From Quercus robur (taxonomy: Eukaryota; Streptophyta; Magnoliopsida; Fagales; Fagaceae), in contig NC_065535.1 of the NCBI RefSeq assembly GCF_932294415.1, positions 68,689,362 through 68,753,361 of the forward strand: a stretch of DNA of 64,000 nucleotides, given 5' to 3'. The position numbers and the translations under genes were made by a program. The notes under the pieces are model-generated. The model searched no databases. It was not told the origin of the DNA and was given only the letters and a program-made list of their open reading frames with translations. Shown here piece after piece: positions 52,238 through 63,585 of this stretch. How positions within the stretch are numbered: position 1 is the stretch's first letter; every line of letters begins with the position of its first letter.

Positions 52238-53365
52238 TGGGCAAATTACTACTTACCTGTTCATCAAAAAATTACAACTTACCCACCTGTAATTTGACTG
52301 AAATTTATGTTACTTGTGATTTGAAAGTTGATATTTTAACTACTTGAGATTAGCTTAGTTAAAGTTTTGTAACCCACATCTGTTAAAAATATGGCTAAAT
52401 ATGTAATTTTATTCTACTTTTATGTCTCTCTCCTCTCAAAACATAAAACACATACAAAAACAAGAAAAAACAAGATCAAGAAAAATGAGGATTTTATACT
52501 TAAGTTGTCTGTTATTGAAATTGCAAATAAAAAAGGGAGGGTTATAAACAAGACAATTTTGTTCTTTGTTAATTGTAGGCCATCCACATTTGCACAAGCT
52601 GCGAAACATAGGAAGTTAGCAGCTGCCAAGGAGAAGGAACTTGCAAACTGTGAGGCTATTTGCAACTCCACTCATCCACTTATATTTACTCATTCAACAT
52701 TTTTAAAATTATCTTGAATCTAATTTCTTGAATGATAAATTGGGCTTTTCAGGTATTTTGAAGACCTATTTGACTAATCAATGATTAGTAATAATTTGTC
52801 TACAATTGAGGAACTTAACACGATATTAGTTTTCAGGTTGGGTAAGTTTTAAAAGCTGTATTGTGGATCCATATAGACTATTCAAGGGTGAAGTTGATTG
52901 GCAAAGAGAATAGAGATTAATTATTAGAGTGAAATAGGTCATTTTTTTTAGGTGGTGGATAAACAATTTAAATGAAGTATAAGAGTTGGAGAGCTGGCCT
53001 GAATTGATGTCATTTGTGCTGTTGCAATTCAAAGTAGAGAAAAGAAAGCAAAGTCTTTTATTTAGAAGAATCCACGTCTTTTGGACTCTACTTTTTGTCT
53101 ATTTTGTTGTAAGGATCTCCTATGAAGAAAGCCTCGACATCGCAAGGAATACTAGTTAAGCATGTTTCTTAATAAGTATAAAAACACCCCCCCCCCCCCC
53201 CTTTAATCTTGTTTTGTCTTGTTTTTGTATGTGTTTTTATTTTGAGAAGAGAGAGACATAAAAGTGGATCAATATTATATATTTAGCCAAATTTTTAATA
53301 GGGGTGGGTTACAAAATTCTAACTGAGTTAACCTCAGGTGGGTAAAGTGTCAAATTTCAATTATA
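52238..53365 (+). mobile_element. Pack-MULE carrying a GET1 fragment
   Basis: The left arm (TTTTGTAACCCACATCTGTT, ATGGCTAAATATGTAAT, ATGTCTCTCTCCTCTCAAAA, ACACATACAAAAACAAGA) is matched in reverse complement by 53195-53340. Arms are about 200 bp. The outer left end (AATTACAACTTACCCACCTGT) resembles the terminus of the MULE at 53935 (ATTACACATTACCCACCTGT), so the two seem to belong to related Mutator families. The right end lacks the last part of the arm and no target duplication was found. Confidence 0.62.
52579..52649 (+). pseudogene. Captured GET1 (WRB-like) exon
   Basis: Between an acceptor (TTAATTGTAG) and a donor (GTGAGG) the frame reads PSTFAQAAKHRKLAAAKEKE and LANC. This is the coiled-coil stretch of plant GET1, the ER receptor subunit that takes tail-anchored proteins from GET3 (family form PSTFAQAAKLRR.A..KEKELA). 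Only this one internal exon is clear; the flanking sequence may be GET1 intron. It sits between MULE-type inverted repeats, so it is a captured fragment. Confidence 0.7.
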
Positions 53366-53925: not shown

Positions 53926-53934
53926 AAAGAAAAA

Positions 53935-54684
53935 GGGATAATTACACATTACCCACCTGTGGTTTACCTCTAATTCTAAGTGCCTACCCGTGGTTTGAAT
54001 TTTGACATTTTGCCCACCTGTGATTATCTCCGTCTATGTGCCGTGTGCCCACCTCTCCCTCACCGTTATTCTAACATAGGAAATAGATTAAAGGTCACTC
54101 CCATCCAGATCAAAACAGTCTCTTTTCCAAAAACTACTCAGTCACTCTCATCCCGCTTACTCACCAAAAATCACTCAGTGTCACTCCCAAAAATCACTCA
54201 AAATCACTCACTCACTCCCCCTTCACCGTTAACGTAAGAAATAGTTGAAAAGTCACTCCCATTTCCCATTCGTTCACTCTTGCTCACCAAAAATCACTGA
54301 GTGTCACTCCCAAGAATCACTCAAAATCACTCACTCACTCACTCACTCCCATCGTTCGTGCAAACCGAACCGACGAAGACGGCTTCTCCGTTCAGCTGTG
54401 GCAGGAAGACTCACTCCTGGGTATCGCGCTTCGCTTCACTTGACTGGGATTTGAAAGCTTGAGGTCATGCATGCAAACCAATTTGAGGAGGATCAAGATT
54501 ATTGCCTCTGTTCTGTTCAGTCGTTGCAGGTAGATTAGGATTTTGCGTTTTAATCTTTGAAATCTAGGGTTCTAAATTGGGTCTTAAAATGCCGGTGGAT
54601 TTTAAAATGCCGGTGGTGGGTTTTAAAATGCCGGTGCCGGTGGTGGGTTTTAAAATGCCGGTGCCGGTGGTGGGTTTTAAAAAT
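53935..54684 (+). repeat. Left terminal inverted repeat of the MULE
   Basis: About 750 bp, roughly 130 bp longer than the right TIR. A block containing CTCACCAAAAATCACTCAGT and CTCAAAATCACTCACTCACT occurs twice here (near 54168-54225 and 54284-54345) but once on the right. The inner edge has three or four units of TTTTAAAATGCCGGTG and GCCGGTGGTGGG. Confidence 0.85.
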
Positions 54685-55424
54685 CCTTTTTTTTTTTTTT
54701 TACAGAGTCGGAGAAATTTCCAGCTGAAACCCAATTTTGTTTTTACAGTTGCTCCTCATTTTTGTATGTTGTAGGCTTTGATGATTGTTCTATTTAGTAT
54801 TACCCGCCTCTCCCTCACCCGATCATGCTCATGATTGTTCTGTTGTAGGCTTTCTCTCTGCCGTGATTTGTATTGTTTAATTGTTTTTGTGGAATGTTAC
54901 CAAATTGAAATCAGTTTGATCATTGGTTACTGCTTCTGTCAATTTGAAATCAGTTTGATTTACTGCTTCTGTTACCAAATTGATCATTGGTTCTGATTTT
55001 CAGATTAATTAGAATGTTACTGGTTGAGTCTATTGTGGACAGCATGTTATAGTTAGTGTCTAATAGACCAGTGAACTAATTATGAATTTGACCAGTGAAC
55101 TAATGGACCAGTGAACTAAAAACCCTCCATTCCCTTTAAAAGTTGAATAATGCTCATGATTTTATTGAAATAATTATTCAGTCAATTATGATATAAGCTG
55201 GATGGTTATATATGCATTTTTAAAATAAGTCCAACTGCATTTTAAGTTCTCTTGTTTGCTCAATTCTGTTTTGAAATAAGTTTGTGATAATAATCGACCA
55301 GTTAACTAATGGTGCTGCTCTTATTACTACTCTTATCCATATAGGTATTGAGTCTTTATTAACAATAGAACTAGATGCCTCATTTTTATATGTTGTGTTT
55401 TATTCTGTTGTGTTTTACATGCAG

Positions 55425-58400
55425 ATGGCTGACTTAGTATTCAATTTTGAGATTCATCATGGTGGGCAGTTTGTGTGGAACCCAGATTTGGTATATTTAG
55501 GAGGTAGTACTTCTTTTGTTGATAATGTTGACCCAGATAGACTTAGTTATTTTGAAATACAAGATATTTGTTGTGATGTGGGGGCACCTAGTACAAGTAG
55601 ATATCATTATCTTATTCCTGGAGGTAATTTGGAGTAAGGGTTAAGGCTTATAAATGAAGATGATGATGTTGTTTATATGTGTGAGATCCATGTTGCATGG
55701 CCTACAGATAAGATAACACTATATGTTGAGGGTGGTGAGGAGCCACTTGCTGTTGAACAACCATTTGGTAATGAGGAAGTAGCAAATGATGATGATGATG
55801 TGCATGAGGTGGGTGAGAGTGATGATGATGTGCATGAGGTGCATGAGGGAGGTAATGTGGATGCTGAAGGAGGTGATATTGATTGGTTAGAGGAAGGGTT
55901 TGAGGGGCCAGATTTTGATGATGATGTTTTTGGAAATGTAGATGATGGGTCATCTACACGTGCAGCCTCACATAGGCCCTCTGAAGGAGATGATTGGCCA
56001 TCTACACATGCAGCCCCACATAGGCCCTCTGAAGGAGATGATGGGCCATCTACCCATGAGGATGTACATATGTATGCAGCCCCACATAGGAATACTGCAG
56101 CTGACAATGACCCACCTCTTGAAGAGGGTGAATGGATTGACCCACCTCTTGAAGATGACATGGAAAGTCTAGTAGGGTCTGATGATGATCAGCCAGCACC
56201 AGCTGTAAAAGAACCTGAGTTTAATGTCCAAACTGACATGAGAAAGCCAGAGTTAAGGAAAGGAATGAAGTTTCCAAACTCTAAAGTATTTAGGGAGGCA
56301 TTGAGGGAATATGCGATAAAGAAGCCAGTAAATATCAAGTTCAAGCTGAATGAGAAGAAGAAGATATCAGTTTATTGTATCAATAAATGTGGATGGAGGT
56401 GTTATGCATCTCAACTACCTGAAGAGTTGACATTCCAAATAAAAACATTCAATCCGGAGTGCACTTGCCCTAGATCCTTCAAACACAGCCAAGTGACTTC
56501 AACTTATGTTGCAAAGAAGTTTATGCAGGAGTTTGACAAAAACCCCAATTGGAAAGTGGCTGGTGTTCAACATCATGTGAAGCAAGCACTTGAAGTTGAC
56601 ATAAGTTACAGTCAAGTGTATAGGGCAAAAAGGAAAGCTACTGACTTGGTTACTAGGGATGAACAGCTGCAATATGGGAAACTTAGGGATTATGCAGAGA
56701 TGATAAGATTGACTGATAAAGGAAGTAGGGTTATTTTGCAAACTGAAATGGAAGATGAAAATGCACAGCCGAAATTTAAGAGAATGTATATTAGGTATAA
56801 TGCACAAAAATTTGGGTTTTTGGGAGGTTGTAGACCAATTATTGGTTTAGATGGGTGCCACTTGAAAGGCAGATTTGGGGGGCAAATACTTTCTGCCATA
56901 GCTAGAGATGCAAATGACAATATTTTCCCAGTTGCATTTGCTGTTGTTGAGCAAGAAAACAAAGATTCATGGGTATGGTTTCTGCAGCAGTTTTCAGATG
57001 ACATTGGGGATCCACAGCAACTTAATCTGGTCTTCATCAGTGACAGACAAAAGGTATGACCTACGATTGTACTAACATATTTAGTAGACATTTTTAAAGT
57101 TCAATAATAATTGAGATGCTGTTTTGTAACAAAGATGCTGTTATGTAACAATTGTACTAACATATTTAGTAGACATTTTTAAAGTTCAATAATAATTGAG
57201 ATGCTGTTTTGTAACAAAGATGCTGTTTTGTAACAAAGATGCTGTTTTGTAACAATTGTACTAACATATTTAGTAGACATTTTTAAAGTTCAATAATAAT
57301 TGAGATGCTGTTTTGTAACAAAGATGCTGTTTTGTAACAATTGTACTAACATATTTACTTGTTCTGTTTTGTAACTTGTATAAGGGCCTTATACCTGCAA
57401 TTGAGATGCTGTTCCCAACTTGTGAGCATAGATATTGTGTGAAGCATATCTATAATAATTTCAAAGTGGATCATAAGGGCTTGGAGTTGAAGGATGCACT
57501 GTGGAGATGTGCTGGAGCCACAACAGTGAGGGAGTTTGAAAGAAGAATGCAGGAAATGAAGGATTTGGATGTCAAGGCATGGGAGTATCTTGCTGACATC
57601 AACCCTGCACAATGGTCTAAGTCTCATTTTAGTAGTAGAGCTTTGTGTGATTGTTTAGCTAATAACTTGAGTGAGTCTTTTAATGCCATGATTTTAGAAG
57701 CTAGGGATAAGCCAATTTTAGCAATGTTGGAGTGGATTAGAGTTAGGCTCATGACCAAACAATACAAAAAGATGAGAGGTATAACAAAATACACTGGAAA
57801 AGTTTGTCCTAATATTCAAGACAAATTAGAGAAGTTAAAACATGAATCTATACCTTTCAGTGCTACTCCAGCAGGCAGCTTCATGTATGAGGTTGATAAT
57901 GGTCATGAGAGACATGTGGTTGACTTGGCTAAGAAAGCATGCAACTGTAGGATTTGGGATTTGACAGGACTTCCCTGCAAACATGGGATCTCTGCTATTG
58001 TTAAGAACCTGGAGAAAGTGGAGGACTATGTGCATCCTTGTTACTTAAAAGAGACATTTGCTGAAACATACAAAGAGATAATACAGCCAATGCCTGGCCA
58101 GTCTGAGTGGGTTAAGACTAACCAACCTGCTCCTGTTGCTCCTCATGTGTATAAACCACCTGGCAGACCACCAAAGCAAAGAAAAAGAGATCCTGAAGAG
58201 CTAAGGAACCCTTATAGAGTTTCTAGGATGAACAAGACAATCAAGTGTGGGAAGTGCAAGAAAGAAGGACATAATGCAAGAGGGTGCAAGGCAGGCATAA
58301 CTGGTGAAACTCCATGGCAGAGAAGAGATAGACTTGCTAAATCAGCAGCTGTAAGTATTTCCATGCTTTGAACTATATTCATTTCCTCAAGTATTTCGTG

Positions 58401-58893
58401 TGTGTAACTTGTACTACCCTCTTTGTAGGCACAAGACAGTAAATCTACAAAAACAAAGCAGACTGCAACACCTCAAACTGCATCTCAGCCACCAAGTGCT
58501 AGATCTCAGAGTGCATACAGAGCTTTTGGTCAAACTGCATCTCAACCTGCACCAAACAATAGATCTGAGGCTGCAACTCAACCTGCAACTAGATCTAAGG
58601 CTAACTGGTTCTCTTCATCTTCACAACCAAGCTTCCATACCCCTAGAAAGACATGGGATTCTTTACCATCTCAGGCACTTCTGGCTTGTTCTATTTTGTT
58701 TATTTTTTTCCTCTTACTTGCTATTGTTGGATCATCTTGCTAATTGTTGGATCACTTTGCTAACTGTTGGATTTTGGTTATGCAGCCAAGTGCATCTGCT
58801 AGGGGGTTTAAAGGCAGAAAGTTTCAACCAGTTGGTGGAAATGGCAAGAATGCAGCTGGCAAGGGCAAAAATGCAGCTGGCAAGGGCACCTAA
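55425..58893 (+). CDS. MULE transposase (MURA/MuDR family), one in-frame stop
   Basis: Proposed exons: 55425-57053, 57385-58350, 58429-58674, 58786-58893 (about 980 codons). The first two introns are GT-AG; the third would be GC-AG and is less sure. The start MADLVFNFEIHHGG follows an acceptor-like TTACATGCAG, so a 5' leader intron is likely. Domain order: N-terminal MuDR region with an acidic repeat (HRPSEGDD units, about 175-215), MULE transposase domain with IIGLDGCHLKG (first Asp) and NLVFISDRQKG (second Asp), SWIM zinc finger (CNCRIWDLTGLPCKHG), CCHC knuckle (CGKCKKEGHNARGC), and a Gln/Ser/Gly-rich tail. Oddity: a TAA at 55635-55637 interrupts PGGNLE/GLRLI, where the frame otherwise continues; an internal start at 55677 would lose 84 residues. 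Confidence 0.88.
57064..57360 (+). repeat. Tandem repeat inside transposase intron 1
   Basis: A unit of about 85-103 bp (TTGTACTAACATATTTAGTA, TTTTTAAAGTTCAATAATAA, TTGAGATGCTGTTTTGTAAC) occurs three times and a fourth time in part. Copies are nearly identical, so the expansion is recent. Confidence 0.9.
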
Positions 58894-59654
58894 AGTAGTA
58901 AATGACAACTTGGAAGATGTTAAAGTTTCAACAACTTTTTTGTTATAGTTCACTTGTTTAATGTATAGGTCAAGTGTCAAAAACAATATTGGCAATTTCG
59001 GTTGGAAATATGTATGTCTGAGCACTAGTGGACTAGTTGGTGGGTTTTAATTGGAAGATGTGTAAAGTCACAGGATGTGCCAAAAACAATGTTGGCAATT
59101 TTGTATGCATGTGACATAAAACTTTGTTAATGTCTCCACTTTTATTTTGTAAAGTCACTGAATAGGTTGCTCTTCTTTTATTTTGTGAAGTCACAGGATG
59201 TGCTCAATGACTCTTCACTTTTATTAATGTTAATGTGCATTGAAATAGGATAAAGTATTTTGTTGTGTTGTGCTTGTCTTGTGCTTTTGGTGGACTTTGT
59301 TTTTCTTATCTTGTTCTTTTGGTGGATTTACACAGGTGTATGTATTCACACAACAAATCATGTGTCTGTGTAAAACATGTTCCATTTATAGGCAGGTGTG
59401 CAACAAATCATGTATATGTGTAAAACATGTTCCATTTATAGGCATGTGTGCATTGACACAGGTGTATATATTGAACCAACATGTTCCATTCAAGTTATTA
59501 TGTTATTAACATTTCCACATAACATTTTGTGCCAATATATATCAATCACAGGATGAAGTAAAAAGGAATAAAAAAATTATACTAAACAATATTTGCACAA
59601 AAACAACACTTTCCATTTCAATTACCCAATAACATTTCAACATCCCACCAAGCA

Positions 59655-60240
59655 TCATGGCAGATTAAGGTTCCTCGCTCTTACATTATTGTTCACTGAG
59701 GCAAAACACAACAACAACATTACAAAAATGAAAAATAACCATGACAAAACTAATGCCATCTTGTACAATCTCTCACTCTCTCTAACTCTCTTAAGTTTCT
59801 CTCTAATTTCTACATAAAGCTCATGAGTTTCTCTTTCCCTCCGGTTACATCTTTCTTCCATTTCCTTAGTTGTCATTTCTCTCTGATTTGCAAGCTGCAA
59901 TTCATTCTCAAGCATACTTATCCTTTCACGGTCACTCTTACAAGTTTTGTTATCCACCCACTGAAAGAAGCCACATTTGGGACCAACCTGAGCATTACAA
60001 TTATAACAATTAATTTCACAGTTCACAATTAATCACAACTAATAATTCAATTCAACTCAATTCAAATACAACAATGTAATTGTTACTTACATTAAATTGA
60101 CTACAACCAACGAATCTTCTTCCATAGTTACCAGCTTTTCGACTTGTTCTTAGGGCACAATTCTCAAGGGTACATAAATGACCATCTCCAGCACGGTAGA
60201 AACCACTAGTTGTAGAGCCATTGCCAGTTGATGAAGACAT
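59655..60240 (-). CDS. GRF-type zinc finger, coiled-coil, membrane-anchored protein encoded in the MULE
   Basis: Two exons, 60240-60091 and 59987-59655, with a GT-AG intron in phase 0, give 160 residues. The finger spans about 22-61: C23, C28, GRRF (40-43), C46, C55 and the closing CGFFQWVD. A helical, charged coiled coil follows (about 65-125), then a hydrophobic span (about 129-148, ALVLSWLFFIFVM) and a short tail. GRF fingers bind single-stranded nucleic acid in proteins such as NEIL3 and APE2; plants have many small GRF/coiled-coil/TM proteins of unknown role. The gene points toward the transposase and lies between the TIRs, so it is a MULE passenger or accessory gene. The frame is open and both splice sites intact. 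Confidence 0.82.
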
Positions 60241-60586
60241 AGCAAAAATTTGTTACAAGCTTATAGACCAACAAATCTGTTACGAGTGGTAAGAATCAAC
60301 TCATCTAAATTTAGTAACAACTACTCATGCTACAACCACATTGTTAAAAAAGTTGATGGGCCACAGACCTTTATTTTAAAGTAATAAGAAAATGCAGATA
60401 TATATTCATAACTGTTAAGCCAGTAATAAGAAAATGCAGATATAAACCAATTCCATGGTTAAGCAAGAACCGAATTTGGAAGAAAGAATTTGGAAGAAAG
60501 ACTACCCAATTTTAAAACCCACAGGAATTTTAACAAAGTGACCGTGCATATTAAGTGAGGAAGAAAGAAATACAATTATCACCGGG

Positions 60587-61203
60587 CATTTTAAAACCCA
60601 CCACCGGCAAAAATGGGTTTTTAAAACCCACCACCGGCACCGGCATTTTAAAATCCACCACCGGCACCGGCATTTTAAGACCCAATTCAGAACCCTAGAT
60701 TTCAAAGATTAAAACGCAAAATCCTAATCTACCTGCAACGGCTGAACAGAACAGCAATAATCTTGATCTTCCTCAAATCGGTTTGCATGCACGACCTCAA
60801 GCTTTCAACTCCCAGTCAAGTGAAGCAAAGCGCGATACCCATGAGTGAGTCTTCCTGCCACAAATGAACGGAGAAGCTGTCTATCTCGGTTCGGTTTGCA
60901 TGAACGATAGGAGTGAGTGAGTGAGTGAGTGAGTGATTTTGAGTGATTTTTGGGAGTGACACTGAGTGATTTTTGGTGAGCAAGCGGATGAGAGTGACTG
61001 AGTGGTTTTTAGAAAAGTGAGTGTTTTGATCTGGATGGGAGTGACTTTGATCTATTTCCTATGTTAGAGTAACGGTGAGGGAGAGGTGGGCACACGGCAC
61101 ATAGACGGAGATAATCACAGGTGGGCAAAGTGTCAAAATTCAAACCACGGATAGGCACTTAGAATTAGAGGTAAACCACATGTGGGTAACGTGTAATTAT
61201 CCC
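60587..61203 (-). repeat. Right terminal inverted repeat of the MULE
   Basis: About 617 bp, reverse complement of the left TIR but with a single copy of the CACTCA-rich block. It contains a run of seven GAGT units (60909-60934). Confidence 0.85.
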
Positions 61204-61375
61204 AAAGAAAAAACCCAACTAAAGTAAGTAAATCCTCTCAACAAAGCCCATTAAAGCAATGGGCCTCAAGCCCTCAACTTCACTGACCTACCCACCCATC
61301 CCCTGATTTGAATCCCGTAAAAACTCCTCTCTATTCTCTGATTGAATCGGATCTAAAACCCCCTAGAATCTTCAA

Positions 61376-62896
61376 ATGTCTGCGGCGGCGAAATTGAGTG
61401 AGAAGGGCCAATCATTGGCCCTAACATCACAATCTTCCACCTCTTCTTCTTCTTCGACAGAGATGACAAAAACCGTCTGCTTTCGTGCAATTTGTAAATC
61501 TCATCAATCGTACTGGTTTGCGGTTAATATTTCCTTCGAAGCCGAAGAAGAGTTGGAGAGCAAAAGAAAGGGAAGAGACGCAGATGAAGAAGACTTGATG
61601 GCCCGCTTCTGTGGACGTCGTCATCACCACTTCGATGGCGTGACTTATGGTAAGTTCCCAACCCTTGAACATGATATCCAACCTTACTCTACTGCTAAAT
61701 TGTCACACCGGTCATCCTGGGCACTCATGGGCTCTAAATTATATTGTGTTGGTGGTTCTTTGCACGAACTTAATAAGTCTAAGAAAAAGAAATCTGATTA
61801 TTCTCGTTTAGTACGAGTTTTTGATTTCAATTTCCCACACAATGGCTGGAATAAGAACCTTTCACTGATGATCAGTCGCAGAGAGATGCCTGGTTTGGCG
61901 GTCTTAGATGGAAAACTCTATGTTTTTGGCGGTACAGGGTGGTGTAATAAGAAGTCACCGTGGGCTGAGGTTTATGATCCCAGTGTAGACAAATGGGAAG
62001 CCTTGCCTCAACCTCCCCCTTATATTATAGATACTATAGAAGACACACCAAGTTTTGTTGTGGCTCTCCATAATTTAAAAAAGATTGTTCTTGATGAATA
62101 TCTGTTCGATGTGATTACTAGTTCCTGGGAGATTTTGAAGGAGGATTGTCGTGATTGTTGTGATAGAGCTGTTAACCAACAACCCGTGGCAGTACAAGAT
62201 ACCATATATTGGTGGTCAGATAGATACGGGTCAGATGGATATGAATCACTCGGAGGATGCCCATATATATATATGCCTACGATTTTAGTGAGATGAAGCT
62301 GTTTCAAGGGCCTCTAAAAGGTTTAGAGCATGATACTGTGATCTCGGATTCCCGGTCCAATCTTTTACACATGGGGGGTGAATGTTTTTGTCTGCTTTGG
62401 TGTCACGGCCTTACCAAAACGCAATACCATTGCACCCAACTTCAAGTCTCCAAACAAGGCCAAGGAGTTTTGAATGCACGTGTACTCTCATGCCAATCTT
62501 TTCTCGCTCCTGGAAAGACTTCTCTTTTTCAAGCACAAATGCTGTATGTTCAATACTGTTTTACTTTATTTAATTATTTGTTTTTATCATTTTTGAGGAA
62601 ATATAATGTAATATTTGCATTGCTTTTTTATTCAGTTTGTTCTTTTTAAGAAACCATTTTAAAATCCTAATATTTGGATACTAAAGCCACAAAAATAACC
62701 TACTACATACACCAAGTACAATCCATTATAACTAGCCTTTGTCATAGGCATCCGCCATTGCCATAATTTGTCTCTATGTGGCAGGGGTATTTCTTTGCAT
62801 GAGGATAACCGACAGGATGAGGCAAGTGCATCCCTAGAAGTAGCCAGCAACAATGGTAGAAAATTGCAGGATGTGACGAACCATCAGCTATACTAG
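61376..62896 (+). pseudogene. Kelch-repeat protein gene with a microsatellite frameshift
   Basis: The frame opens MSAAAKLSEKGQSLALTSQS and shows kelch-type blades: SSWALMGSKLYCVGG, REMPGLAVLDGKLYVFGG and WAEVYDPSVDKWEALPQPP. Such proteins form beta-propellers that bind partners, often with an F-box; no F-box is visible here. At 62263-62274 there are six AT units. This shifts the frame to MPTILVR and a stop, whereas the next frame continues YAYDFSEMKLFQGPLKGLE to AQML. Five AT units would keep one frame. A donor at 62544 (CT/GTATGT) and an acceptor at 62784 (GTGGCAG) join a last exon, 62785-62896, GISLHEDNRQDEASASLEVA. Without the shift the product is 425 residues. The change could be a real null allele, a polymorphism or an assembly error. 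A MULE ends 164 bp before the ATG. Confidence 0.75.
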
Positions 62897-63585
62897 TCTA
62901 AGCTAACATAAAACTTATGTAGAAGGTGAGGATGATTATACTTTGTTTTTTGTTTTTGAACTTACATGAAGAACATAATATTGATTACTTTGGATAGTCT
63001 TTGAAATATGCTTCTTTTCTAGATGTAGAGTGCAAATTTATTGTCTCACAGTACAGTTTGAGGTTGACCATATTATGACCAATTATTTGTTTTTATCATT
63101 TTTGAGGAAATATAATGTCATATTTGCATTGCTTTTTTATTCAGTTTGTTCTTTTTAAGAAACCCTTTTAAAATCCTAATATTTGGATACTAAAGCCACA
63201 AAAATAACTTACTACTCCAAGTGCAATCCATTATAACTAGCCTTTGTCATAGGCATCCGCCATTGCCATAATTTGTCTCTATGTGGCAGGGGTATTTCTT
63301 TGCACGAGGATAACCGACAGGATGAGGCAAGTGCGTCCCTAGAAGTAGTCAACAACAATGGTAGAAAATTGCAGGATGTGATGAACCATCAGGCTATGCT
63401 AGTCTAAGCTAACATAAAACTTATGTAGAAGGTGAGGATGATCATACTTTGTTTTTTGTTTTTGAACTTACATGAAGAACATAATATTAATTACTTTGGA
63501 TAGTCTTTGAAATATGCTTCTTTTCTAGATGTAGAGTGCAAATTTATCGTCTCACGGTACAGTTTGAGGTTGACCATATTATGAC
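62572..63585. repeat. Tandem duplication of the kelch gene's last exon, unit about 509 bp
   Basis: 62572-63080 and 63081-63585 are nearly identical (starting AATTATTTGTTTTTATC, ending TTGACCATATTATGAC). Each copy has part of the intron, the acceptor and the last exon. Copy 2 keeps the exon open (GISLHEDNRQDEASAS-like) but ends differently: NHQAMLV, stop TAA, against NHQLY, stop TAG, because of one base. Only a few per cent divergence, so a young duplication. Confidence 0.92.

What the first reader, a model, noticed from the sequence alone, without database searches (positions are those of the whole stretch)
59655..60240. MULE carries a second, intact gene: GRF zinc finger + coiled coil + membrane anchor
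Plant MULEs usually carry only MURA; maize MuDR adds mudrB, which has no known relatives outside maize and close kin. Here a clean two-exon gene lies between perfect element ends, convergent with the transposase, like the mudrA/mudrB layout. Its protein has a GRF finger (a single-stranded nucleic-acid reader in other proteins), a coiled coil and a membrane span. If this gene recurs in other MULEs, many orphan plant GRF proteins may be MULE accessory proteins. The link to transposition is inference; the gene and its position are direct observation.
Basis: partly seen in the sequence, partly recalled or inferred. Interest (0 to 1): 0.75.

Follow-up and report, generated by a model that had tools for sequence, protein, structure and literature searches.

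The report
Jumping genes sharing a zinc-finger helper
A small zinc-finger, membrane-anchored gene inside one plant jumping gene turns out to sit in the same place in scores of related elements, and in a second, unrelated kind of jumping gene in the same genome, so it looks like a shared helper gene rather than a chance passenger.

Summary
The gene is real: two exons (60240-60091, 59987-59655, minus strand), GRF zinc finger (32.2 bits), charged helix, C-terminal membrane span, inside a 7,269-bp MULE (53935-61203) with long TIRs and a perfect 9-bp TSD. This copy's transposase frame holds a stop; its GRF frame is open. In the host plant genome the association is systematic: 92 of 117 listed GRF places lie within 5 kb of a related MURA hit, all 92 convergent and downstream (random maximum 4); 112 of 126 MURA hits have a GRF gene within 6 kb, convergent; 0 of 150 other PF10551 places do. 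Three MULE clades carry it, two sharing the intron position. Unexpectedly, two groups of PIF/Harbinger elements carry GRF genes too (31 of 36 and 25 of 51 places beside DDE_Tnp_4, all convergent); one group shares intron position and tail with the MULE genes. Fixed differences suggest purifying selection (5 nonsynonymous, 8 synonymous, p=0.0017). Function is untested, and only one genome was searched. Convergent second genes in MULEs are known; a GRF one shared by two superfamilies was not found in the papers searched.

The parts
53926..53934 (.). left 9-bp target-site duplication AAAGAAAAA
53935..54692 (+). left terminal inverted repeat of the MULE (terminus GGGATAATTACACA), with internal tandem repeats
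55425..58893 (+). MURA-type transposase gene (DBD_Tnp_Mut, MULE and SWIM domains; introns about 57054-57384, from 58351 and from about 58678, placed by eye); in-frame TAA at 55635-55637 in this copy
60091..60240 (-). GRF gene exon 1 (start codon begins at 60240; N-terminal part of the GRF finger)
59988..60090 (-). GRF gene intron, GTAAGT...CAG; corresponding position in MULE family C and Harbinger family E genes
59655..59987 (-). GRF gene exon 2 (rest of GRF finger, charged helix, membrane span, 15-residue tail ...VRARNLNLP, stop)
60609..61203 (-). right terminal inverted repeat; the GRF start codon lies 369 bp inside it
61204..61212 (.). right 9-bp target-site duplication AAAGAAAAA

Best explanation
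The gene is a long-standing accessory gene of a group of MULEs, in the position mudrB holds in maize MuDR: just inside the 3' TIR, read inward, convergent with the transposase. SHOWN in this one genome: gene structure, TIRs and TSD, recurrence in three MULE clades with constant layout, corresponding intron position in A and C (absent in B), a low ratio of fixed nonsynonymous differences between two subgroups of family A, and homologous genes in PIF/Harbinger elements. INFERRED: each TIR drives one gene, so the two genes converge; the GRF finger binds single-stranded nucleic acid as in APE2; the helix makes it an oligomer; the C-terminal span makes it a tail-anchored ER or nuclear-envelope protein. 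Most likely role, itself inferred (about 0.3): a helper acting on the element's own nucleic acid, either the exposed strands or 3' ends of the excised or inserting element, or its transcripts, held at the nuclear envelope/ER. An anti-silencing role like that of VANC is the main alternative. Because unrelated transposases (MURA and DDE_Tnp_4) both keep such a gene, the service is probably not specific to one transposase.
For: Recurrence: 92/117 GRF places within 5 kb of a listed MURA, 92/92 convergent and downstream, most gaps 1.1-1.7 kb; random placement reached at most 4 of 117 in 2,000 runs. Reverse: 112/126 MURA hits have a GRF within 6 kb, the nearest convergent in all 112. Specificity: 0/150 top PF10551 places of other lineages lie within 6 kb of a listed A-D GRF. 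Whole elements: A window; B L057+L030 (TIRs near-identical, TSD TAATAAATA read by eye); C L029 (TIR, TSD TTTTAGTTT); all three begin GGGATAATTAC. GRF start codons lie 86 bp (B, L030), 162 bp (C, L029) and 369 bp (A) inside the TIR. Selection: fixed differences 5 nonsynonymous in 376.8 sites, 8 synonymous in 103.2, ratio 0.17, Fisher p=0.0017. Harbinger: D 31/36 and E 25/51 places within 6 kb of DDE_Tnp_4, 56/56 convergent; one D element with ends GGGGCCTGTTTGG / GGGCCGTTTGG and 3-bp TSD CTA (by eye) and a Myb_DNA-bind_3 ORF. GRF relation to NEIL3 and APE2 chains: 2.1e-7, 1.5e-4, 0.012.
Against: No expression, localisation or binding data. 14 of 126 MURA hits had no listed GRF within 6 kb; two have one 11.6 and 18.5 kb away, the other 12 were not examined. 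GRF places with no listed transposase nearby: 25 of 117 (A-C, 5 kb), 38 of 59 further C places (6 kb), 5 of 36 D, 26 of 51 E; the transposase lists are capped (126 of 1143, 150 of 596, 150 of 626 candidates scored), so these may be decayed, displaced or unlisted. 97 of the 150 listed DDE_Tnp_4 rows have no D or E gene within 6 kb; among the 18 E-type DDE rows of 78% identity or more, 9 have none listed. Pairwise dN/dS is not uniformly low: 0.07-1.38 within A, 0.36-2.54 within B, on few changes. The A copies fetched for this were chosen because one search showed no stop in their exon 2. The copy L029 has Tyr where other C copies have a GRF cysteine, and of three E copies only L060 keeps both frame and splice signals. 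[quoted passage not shown]
Confidence: 0.82

Rival explanations
1. Passenger capture: a host GRF gene was caught by a MULE (Pack-MULE style) and multiplied with it, doing nothing for the element.
For: MULEs are known to capture host genes; a host-like GRF plus membrane-span pair exists at C40:8.14-8.16 Mb (L009, L015) with no MURA or DDE_Tnp_4 found within about 5 kb; young copies decay, and pairwise dN/dS is often near or above 1.
Against: Three MULE clades keep the gene at the same place although GRF proteins have diverged to 38-61% identity (transposase exon 2: 67-74%); 11 of 14 fetched A copies (chosen as stop-free in exon 2) keep the whole frame and both splice signals; fixed differences have ratio 0.17, p=0.0017; a related gene is kept in Harbinger elements.
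Confidence: 0.12
2. Insertion preference: the elements merely like to land next to GRF genes of the host.
For: MULEs often insert near genes (established knowledge).
Against: In the window, L029, L030 and L031 the GRF gene lies between the two TIRs; orientation is convergent in 92/92, 31/31 and 25/25 cases; spacing is nearly constant.
Confidence: 0.02
3. Anti-silencing factor: the protein counters host silencing of the element, as VANC of VANDAL MULEs does, for instance by binding single-stranded transcripts or siRNA precursors at the ER, instead of helping the DNA reaction.
For: A MULE accessory protein with this role is published (VANC; starts of the abstracts of PMC5735166 and PMC10398659 in the listing). 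A membrane anchor fits a cytoplasmic or ER role better than a DNA reaction inside the nucleus. Presence with two transposase types fits a role not tied to one transposase.
Against: No sequence relation to VANC was tested here; VANCs are described as sequence-specific (same abstracts), while a GRF finger is expected to read single strands without sequence preference (inference).
Confidence: 0.3
4. Independent origin in the two superfamilies: MULEs and Harbingers each captured a member of the same host GRF gene family, with no exchange between transposons.
For: Family D differs strongly (no intron in the finger, no such tail, 29% identity over 97 residues to A, E=5.5e-5); the tree leaves A, D and E poorly placed; host-like GRF membrane genes exist (L009, L015).
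Against: Family E shares with A-C the intron position, the start of the protein, residues around the finger and the ...R.LP-like tail (tails by eye), and the place in the element is alike.
Confidence: 0.45

Closest known systems
maize MuDR (mudrA/mudrB)
   Same: Second gene read in the opposite direction to the transposase gene, in a MULE with long TIRs (described in passages of PMC9168764 sections 3, 13, 23 and PMC6446971 section 3).
   Different: Nothing in the passages read describes a GRF finger in MURB; no MURB sequence was compared here. mudrB is reported as needed for insertion; no such test exists here.
Abermu MULE family (ORFR)
   Same: Type II elements have ORFR between the transposase ORF and the 3' TIR, read in the opposite direction, faster-evolving than the transposase, Ka/Ks below 1, function unclear (PMC9168764). 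The layout here is the same.
Plant MUDR-type MULEs with an antisense PMD ORF; VANDAL (vanB, vanC)
   Same: Accessory ORFs, often antisense to the transposase, are listed for several plant MULE groups (PMC6446971 table and passages).
   Different: Different protein domain; 'GRF' does not occur in that main text.
PIF/Harbinger elements
   Same: DDE_Tnp_4 transposase, Myb/SANT ORF, short TIRs, 3-bp TSD.
   Different: Two ORFs are described for most groups (PMC4482050, passages); the family D element here carries a third gene, the convergent GRF gene.
GRF (Zn_ribbon_GRF) domains of NEIL3 and APE2
   Same: Same zinc finger by sequence; the APE2 finger is reported to bind single-stranded DNA (PMC6122073, passages).
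   Different: Here the finger stands alone with a helix and membrane span, with no enzyme domain found by Pfam.

Membership tests
MULE (Mutator-like element) | MURA-type transposase with DBD_Tnp_Mut, MULE and SWIM domains | tested here: met
   all three above cut-off; frame interrupted by a TAA in this copy
MULE (Mutator-like element) | terminal inverted repeats and 8-11 bp target-site duplication | tested here: met
   long TIRs, perfect 9-bp TSD
zf-GRF / Zn_ribbon_GRF protein | Pfam PF06839 above its curated cut-off | tested here: met
   window protein (A) 32.2 bits and D 30.1 against 25.9; relatives B 22.5, C 25.3, E 22.0 bits fall below the cut-off though E-values are 1.6e-5 to 1.8e-4
zf-GRF / Zn_ribbon_GRF protein | binds single-stranded nucleic acid | not testable with these tools
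   inferred from APE2 (PMC6122073)
mudrB / MURB | sequence relation to MURB | not tested
   no MURB sequence was fetched; layout alone is alike
Abermu family | nucleotide relation to Hvu_Abermu | not testable with these tools
   no plant collection held; layout alone is alike
PIF/Harbinger (families D and E carriers) | DDE_Tnp_4 transposase | tested here: met
   L024 4.3e-13; L034 4.2e-14
PIF/Harbinger (families D and E carriers) | Myb/SANT ORF, short TIR, 3-bp TSD | tested here: met
   one family D element only: Myb_DNA-bind_3 1.1e-19, ends and CTA TSD by eye; for family E the ends were not read
coiled-coil protein | heptad pattern above chance | tested here: inconclusive
   A p=0.57, C 0.053, E 0.03, B 0.02, D 0.0005

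The most novel reading that the evidence does not exclude
A GRF-helix-tail-anchor gene is a shared service gene of plant DNA transposons that has passed between MULEs and PIF/Harbinger elements, placed just inside one end and read against the transposase; it supplies a step common to both kinds of element (handling of single-stranded element DNA or RNA at the nuclear envelope/ER), and many small orphan plant GRF proteins are such transposon genes or their descendants.
Probability: 0.45. Interest if true: 0.8.

Novelty: new variant of a known kind. Interest (0 to 1): 0.64.

Why it matters
What mudrB and other second genes of MULEs do is an old open question (mudrB's function is called unknown in PMC6446971; that it has few relatives is recalled). 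Here is a second-gene family with a recognisable domain, dozens of copies, two unrelated transposase partners and a natural control (other lineages without it), which makes the question testable by sequence in other plants and by simple localisation and binding assays. It also warns that small GRF genes in plant annotations may be transposon genes: of the 20 Pfam GRF matches listed in this genome, 11 were family D and 1 family B.

Tried and rejected
Chance proximity: rejected by random placement and by the PF10551 control. One-off capture: rejected by recurrence. First idea that MURA clades of 68% identity or less lack the gene (3 of 30): wrong; a family C query raised this to 21 of 30. First idea that the 50-60% Harbinger group lacks it (1 of 17): partly wrong, several carry family E. 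Small MULE at 52260-53360 in the window: only degenerate TIR-like pieces, no TSD. Plant-wide test: not possible, no plant collection held. Papers: four searches asking for GRF terms together with transposon terms gave 0, 0, 1 and 4 papers; those listed are on other subjects by title and were not opened. In three looser searches only the best 20, 20 and 12 of many papers were shown. The library lacks most subscription papers, and Repbase was not available.

Rows dropped or classed by hand: rows (a cut list) were collapsed to 117 places (exon rows of one gene joined) and classed A/B/C by identity; rows already in A or B, second pieces and three tandem partial copies at C3:60628 kb were left out, giving 59 C places; the 44 rows were collapsed to 36 places; the count used 48 rows, the 47 best of 150 plus one lower row (C4:7863244) that I added and that is the 1 of 17; one search used all 150; (a cut list) only rows not belonging to A-C were kept (76 rows, 51 places); rows matching places were merged (10 new places, 160 in all). 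In the fixed-difference count L043 (frame broken), L047 (stop) and L048 were left out, 12 of 15 aligned copies used.

Full report
WHAT IS THERE. The window holds a 7,269-bp Mutator-like element, 53935-61203, ending in GGGATAATTAC... on both sides and flanked by the perfect 9-bp repeat AAAGAAAAA. The transposase gene runs left to right and has DBD_Tnp_Mut, MULE and SWIM domains; in this copy a TAA at 55635-55637 interrupts its frame. The second gene runs right to left: exon 1 60240-60091, intron 59988-60090 (GTAAGT...CAG), exon 2 59987-59655. Its 160-residue product has a GRF finger at 23-64 (32.2 bits, cut-off 25.9), a charged, Pro- and Gly-free stretch of 57 residues, and a membrane span at 127-145 with a 15-residue tail. 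By sequence its finger is nearest, among solved structures, to NEIL3 (2.1e-7) and APE2 (0.012). The coiled coil is likely but not shown for this copy (heptad test p=0.57; relatives B 0.02, C 0.053, E 0.03, D 0.0005).

DOES IT RECUR? The window lies in a genome of 785.7 Mb, of which 12 large contigs make up 784.3 Mb. A search with the GRF protein gave 180 matches (150 of 585 candidates scored; list cut), which I collapsed to 117 places: family A, two-exon like the window (39), family B, mostly one-exon and 40-59% identical in the matched part (76), and two of a family C. A search with transposase residues of window 57400-58347 gave 126 matches (126 of 1143 candidates scored). Of the 117 GRF places, 92 lie within 5 kb of a listed transposase; all 92 are downstream of it and convergent, most 1.1-1.7 kb away. 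Random placement of 117 points, 2,000 times, gave a mean of 0.21 and a maximum of 4. A family C query (157 matches, 150 of 427 scored, list cut) added 59 C places, of which 21 have a listed transposase within 6 kb. With A, B and C together, 112 of 126 transposase hits have a GRF gene within 6 kb, the nearest convergent in all 112: 31 of 33 at 80% identity or more, 60 of 63 at 69-79%, 21 of 30 at 68% or less. Two of the 14 without have the gene 11.6 and 18.5 kb away; the other 12 were not examined. As a control, the 150 best PF10551 places (150 of 1249 candidates scored), none of them within 3 kb of the 126, have no listed A-D GRF gene within 6 kb; three places within 10 kb are copies of one tripled locus.

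WHOLE ELEMENTS. Family B (L057+L030) has TIRs starting GGGATAATTACACATAACCC, TSD TAATAAATA (read by eye), open transposase frames of 598 and 337 codons and a one-exon GRF gene whose ATG lies 86 bp inside the TIR block. Family C (L029) has TIRs 97-99% complementary and the perfect TSD TTTTAGTTT; L031 is a second member. L029 has Tyr where L031 and L061 have a cysteine of the finger. The C gene has an intron at the position corresponding to A (after ...GRRFLGCSRYK), absent in B (L061). B and C proteins are 61% identical, A and B 38%, A and C 40%; transposase exon 2 of the same elements is 67-74% identical. So the accessory gene evolves faster than the transposase, as reported for Abermu ORFR (PMC9168764).

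SELECTION. Fourteen further A copies were fetched, chosen because one search showed no stop in exon 2. Eight of them are nearly identical to the window copy and keep frame and splice signals; of the other six, L044, L046 and L048 also do, L045 has lost the acceptor AG, L047 has a stop and L043 is frame-broken. Between the nine young copies (window included) and L044-L046, 8 synonymous (103.2 sites) and 5 nonsynonymous (376.8 sites) differences are fixed, ratio 0.17, Fisher p=0.0017. Simple pairs vary widely: 0.07-1.38 within A, 0.36-2.54 within B, most on few changes, as expected of copies decaying after insertion.

A SECOND SUPERFAMILY. The Pfam GRF search of the genome gave 20 matches (150 of 235 scored). 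Eleven belong to a different repeat, family D: a GRF, helix and membrane-span protein of 123 residues. In L024 it is convergent with a DDE_Tnp_4 transposase (4.3e-13) in an element ending GGGGCCTGTTTGG / GGGCCGTTTGG with TSD CTA (by eye) and carrying a Myb_DNA-bind_3 ORF (1.1e-19): a PIF/Harbinger element with three genes. A D query gave 36 places (52 of 52 candidates scored); 31 lie within 6 kb of one of 48 DDE_Tnp_4 rows used, all 31 convergent. DDE rows of 61% identity or more: 30 of 31 have it; 50-60%: 1 of 17 (the 1 is a row I added). One of those 17 (L034) turned out to carry yet another GRF gene, family E. An E query gave 175 matches (150 of 478 scored, list cut), 51 places after removing A-C rows; 25 of 51 lie within 6 kb of the 160 DDE_Tnp_4 places from two searches, all 25 convergent; 0 of 51 lie within 6 kb of a listed MURA. 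Mixed neighbours are rare: 1 of 160 DDE places lies near an A-C gene and 1 of 126 MURA hits near a D or E gene, by the coordinates an A and a D element side by side at C1:24.93-24.94 Mb. Against full coupling: 97 of 150 DDE_Tnp_4 rows have neither a D nor an E gene within 6 kb, and among the 18 E-type DDE rows of 78% or more, 9 have a listed E gene and 9 do not. Family E proteins (L058-L060) begin MSETSNYYSS, have C.LRTSLKLH.FGRRF, the intron at the corresponding position, C.FFKWLDTNTC, a charged helix, a membrane span and a tail such as DVRSRQMYLPG; A ends NVRARNLNLP, B GVKRPRLLPLK, C MMRLSLPDGL (tails compared by eye). Of the three, L058 has a stop and L059 lacks the acceptor AG; L060 keeps both frame and splice signals. 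E is therefore a full-length homologue of the MULE genes, while D is more distant. A small tree is not rooted and places A, D and E poorly, so the direction of any exchange is open.

OTHER GRF GENES. Of the other nine Pfam matches one is family B (L019) and eight look like host genes: L010 APE2-like and L012 TOP3-like (judged by eye), a cluster L017/L020/L021/L028 with a CCHC knuckle before the finger, and a tandem pair L009/L015 with finger, helix and membrane span but no MURA or DDE_Tnp_4 found nearby. The pair could be the kind of host gene from which the transposon gene came, or a tamed transposon gene.

HOW IT MAY WORK. Long Mutator TIRs are said to carry promoters (start of the abstract of PMC3310237, listing); GRF starts lie 86-369 bp inside the TIR in the three elements measured, so each TIR probably drives one gene and convergence follows. 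The APE2 GRF finger is reported to bind single-stranded DNA (PMC6122073, passages). A C-terminal membrane span with a short tail is the layout of tail-anchored proteins (general knowledge). I therefore think it most likely that the protein holds single-stranded element DNA or RNA at the ER/nuclear envelope and helps transposition or expression of the element; this is inference, about 0.3. The main rival is counter-silencing, as for VANC (starts of abstracts). That two unrelated transposases keep relatives of it argues for a service not tied to one transposase.

WHAT IS KNOWN. Convergent second genes in MULEs are known: mudrB, Abermu ORFR, and antisense PMD in several plant MULE groups (PMC9168764, sections 13, 15, 23 and passages; PMC6446971, passages). 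Most groups of the superfamily that holds PIF/Harbinger are described with two ORFs (PMC4482050, passages). 'GRF' does not occur in the main texts of PMC6446971, PMC9168764, PMC2213677 or PMC4482050, and the searches listed no paper joining GRF fingers with these elements by title. Presence of one accessory gene in several DNA-transposon lineages has a precedent in fungi (TET/JBP, PMC12730594, title and abstract start in the listing). I therefore call it a new variant of a known kind.

Noticed in passing
L009 (C40:8153800-8163700) and L015 (C40:8135800-8145750): Tandem pair of GRF, helix and membrane-span genes with open frames in a local duplication, no transposase found nearby: possible host source or tamed transposon gene.
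   Followed up: partly
window 52260-53360: Two degenerate pieces resembling the MULE TIR in opposite orientation (72-85% identity), probably an old remnant; no TSD found.
   Followed up: partly
window 61376-63580: Kelch gene starting about 170 bp beyond the element; a stretch of roughly 500 bp downstream of it is repeated nearly identically (about 62560-63060 and 63060-63580, by eye).
   Followed up: no
window 57063-57357: Transposase intron filled by near-perfect tandem repeats of 85-104 bp with an inner 19-bp unit.
   Followed up: no
G000:C40 5862434-5925441: A family A element appears three times 30,110 bp apart with identical scores, a recent triplication or an assembly artefact.
   Followed up: no
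L013:2623-4150: A small stretch bounded by TIRs about 80% like the window MULE, with no MURA or GRF match between them, sits inside a family D repeat copy.
   Followed up: no
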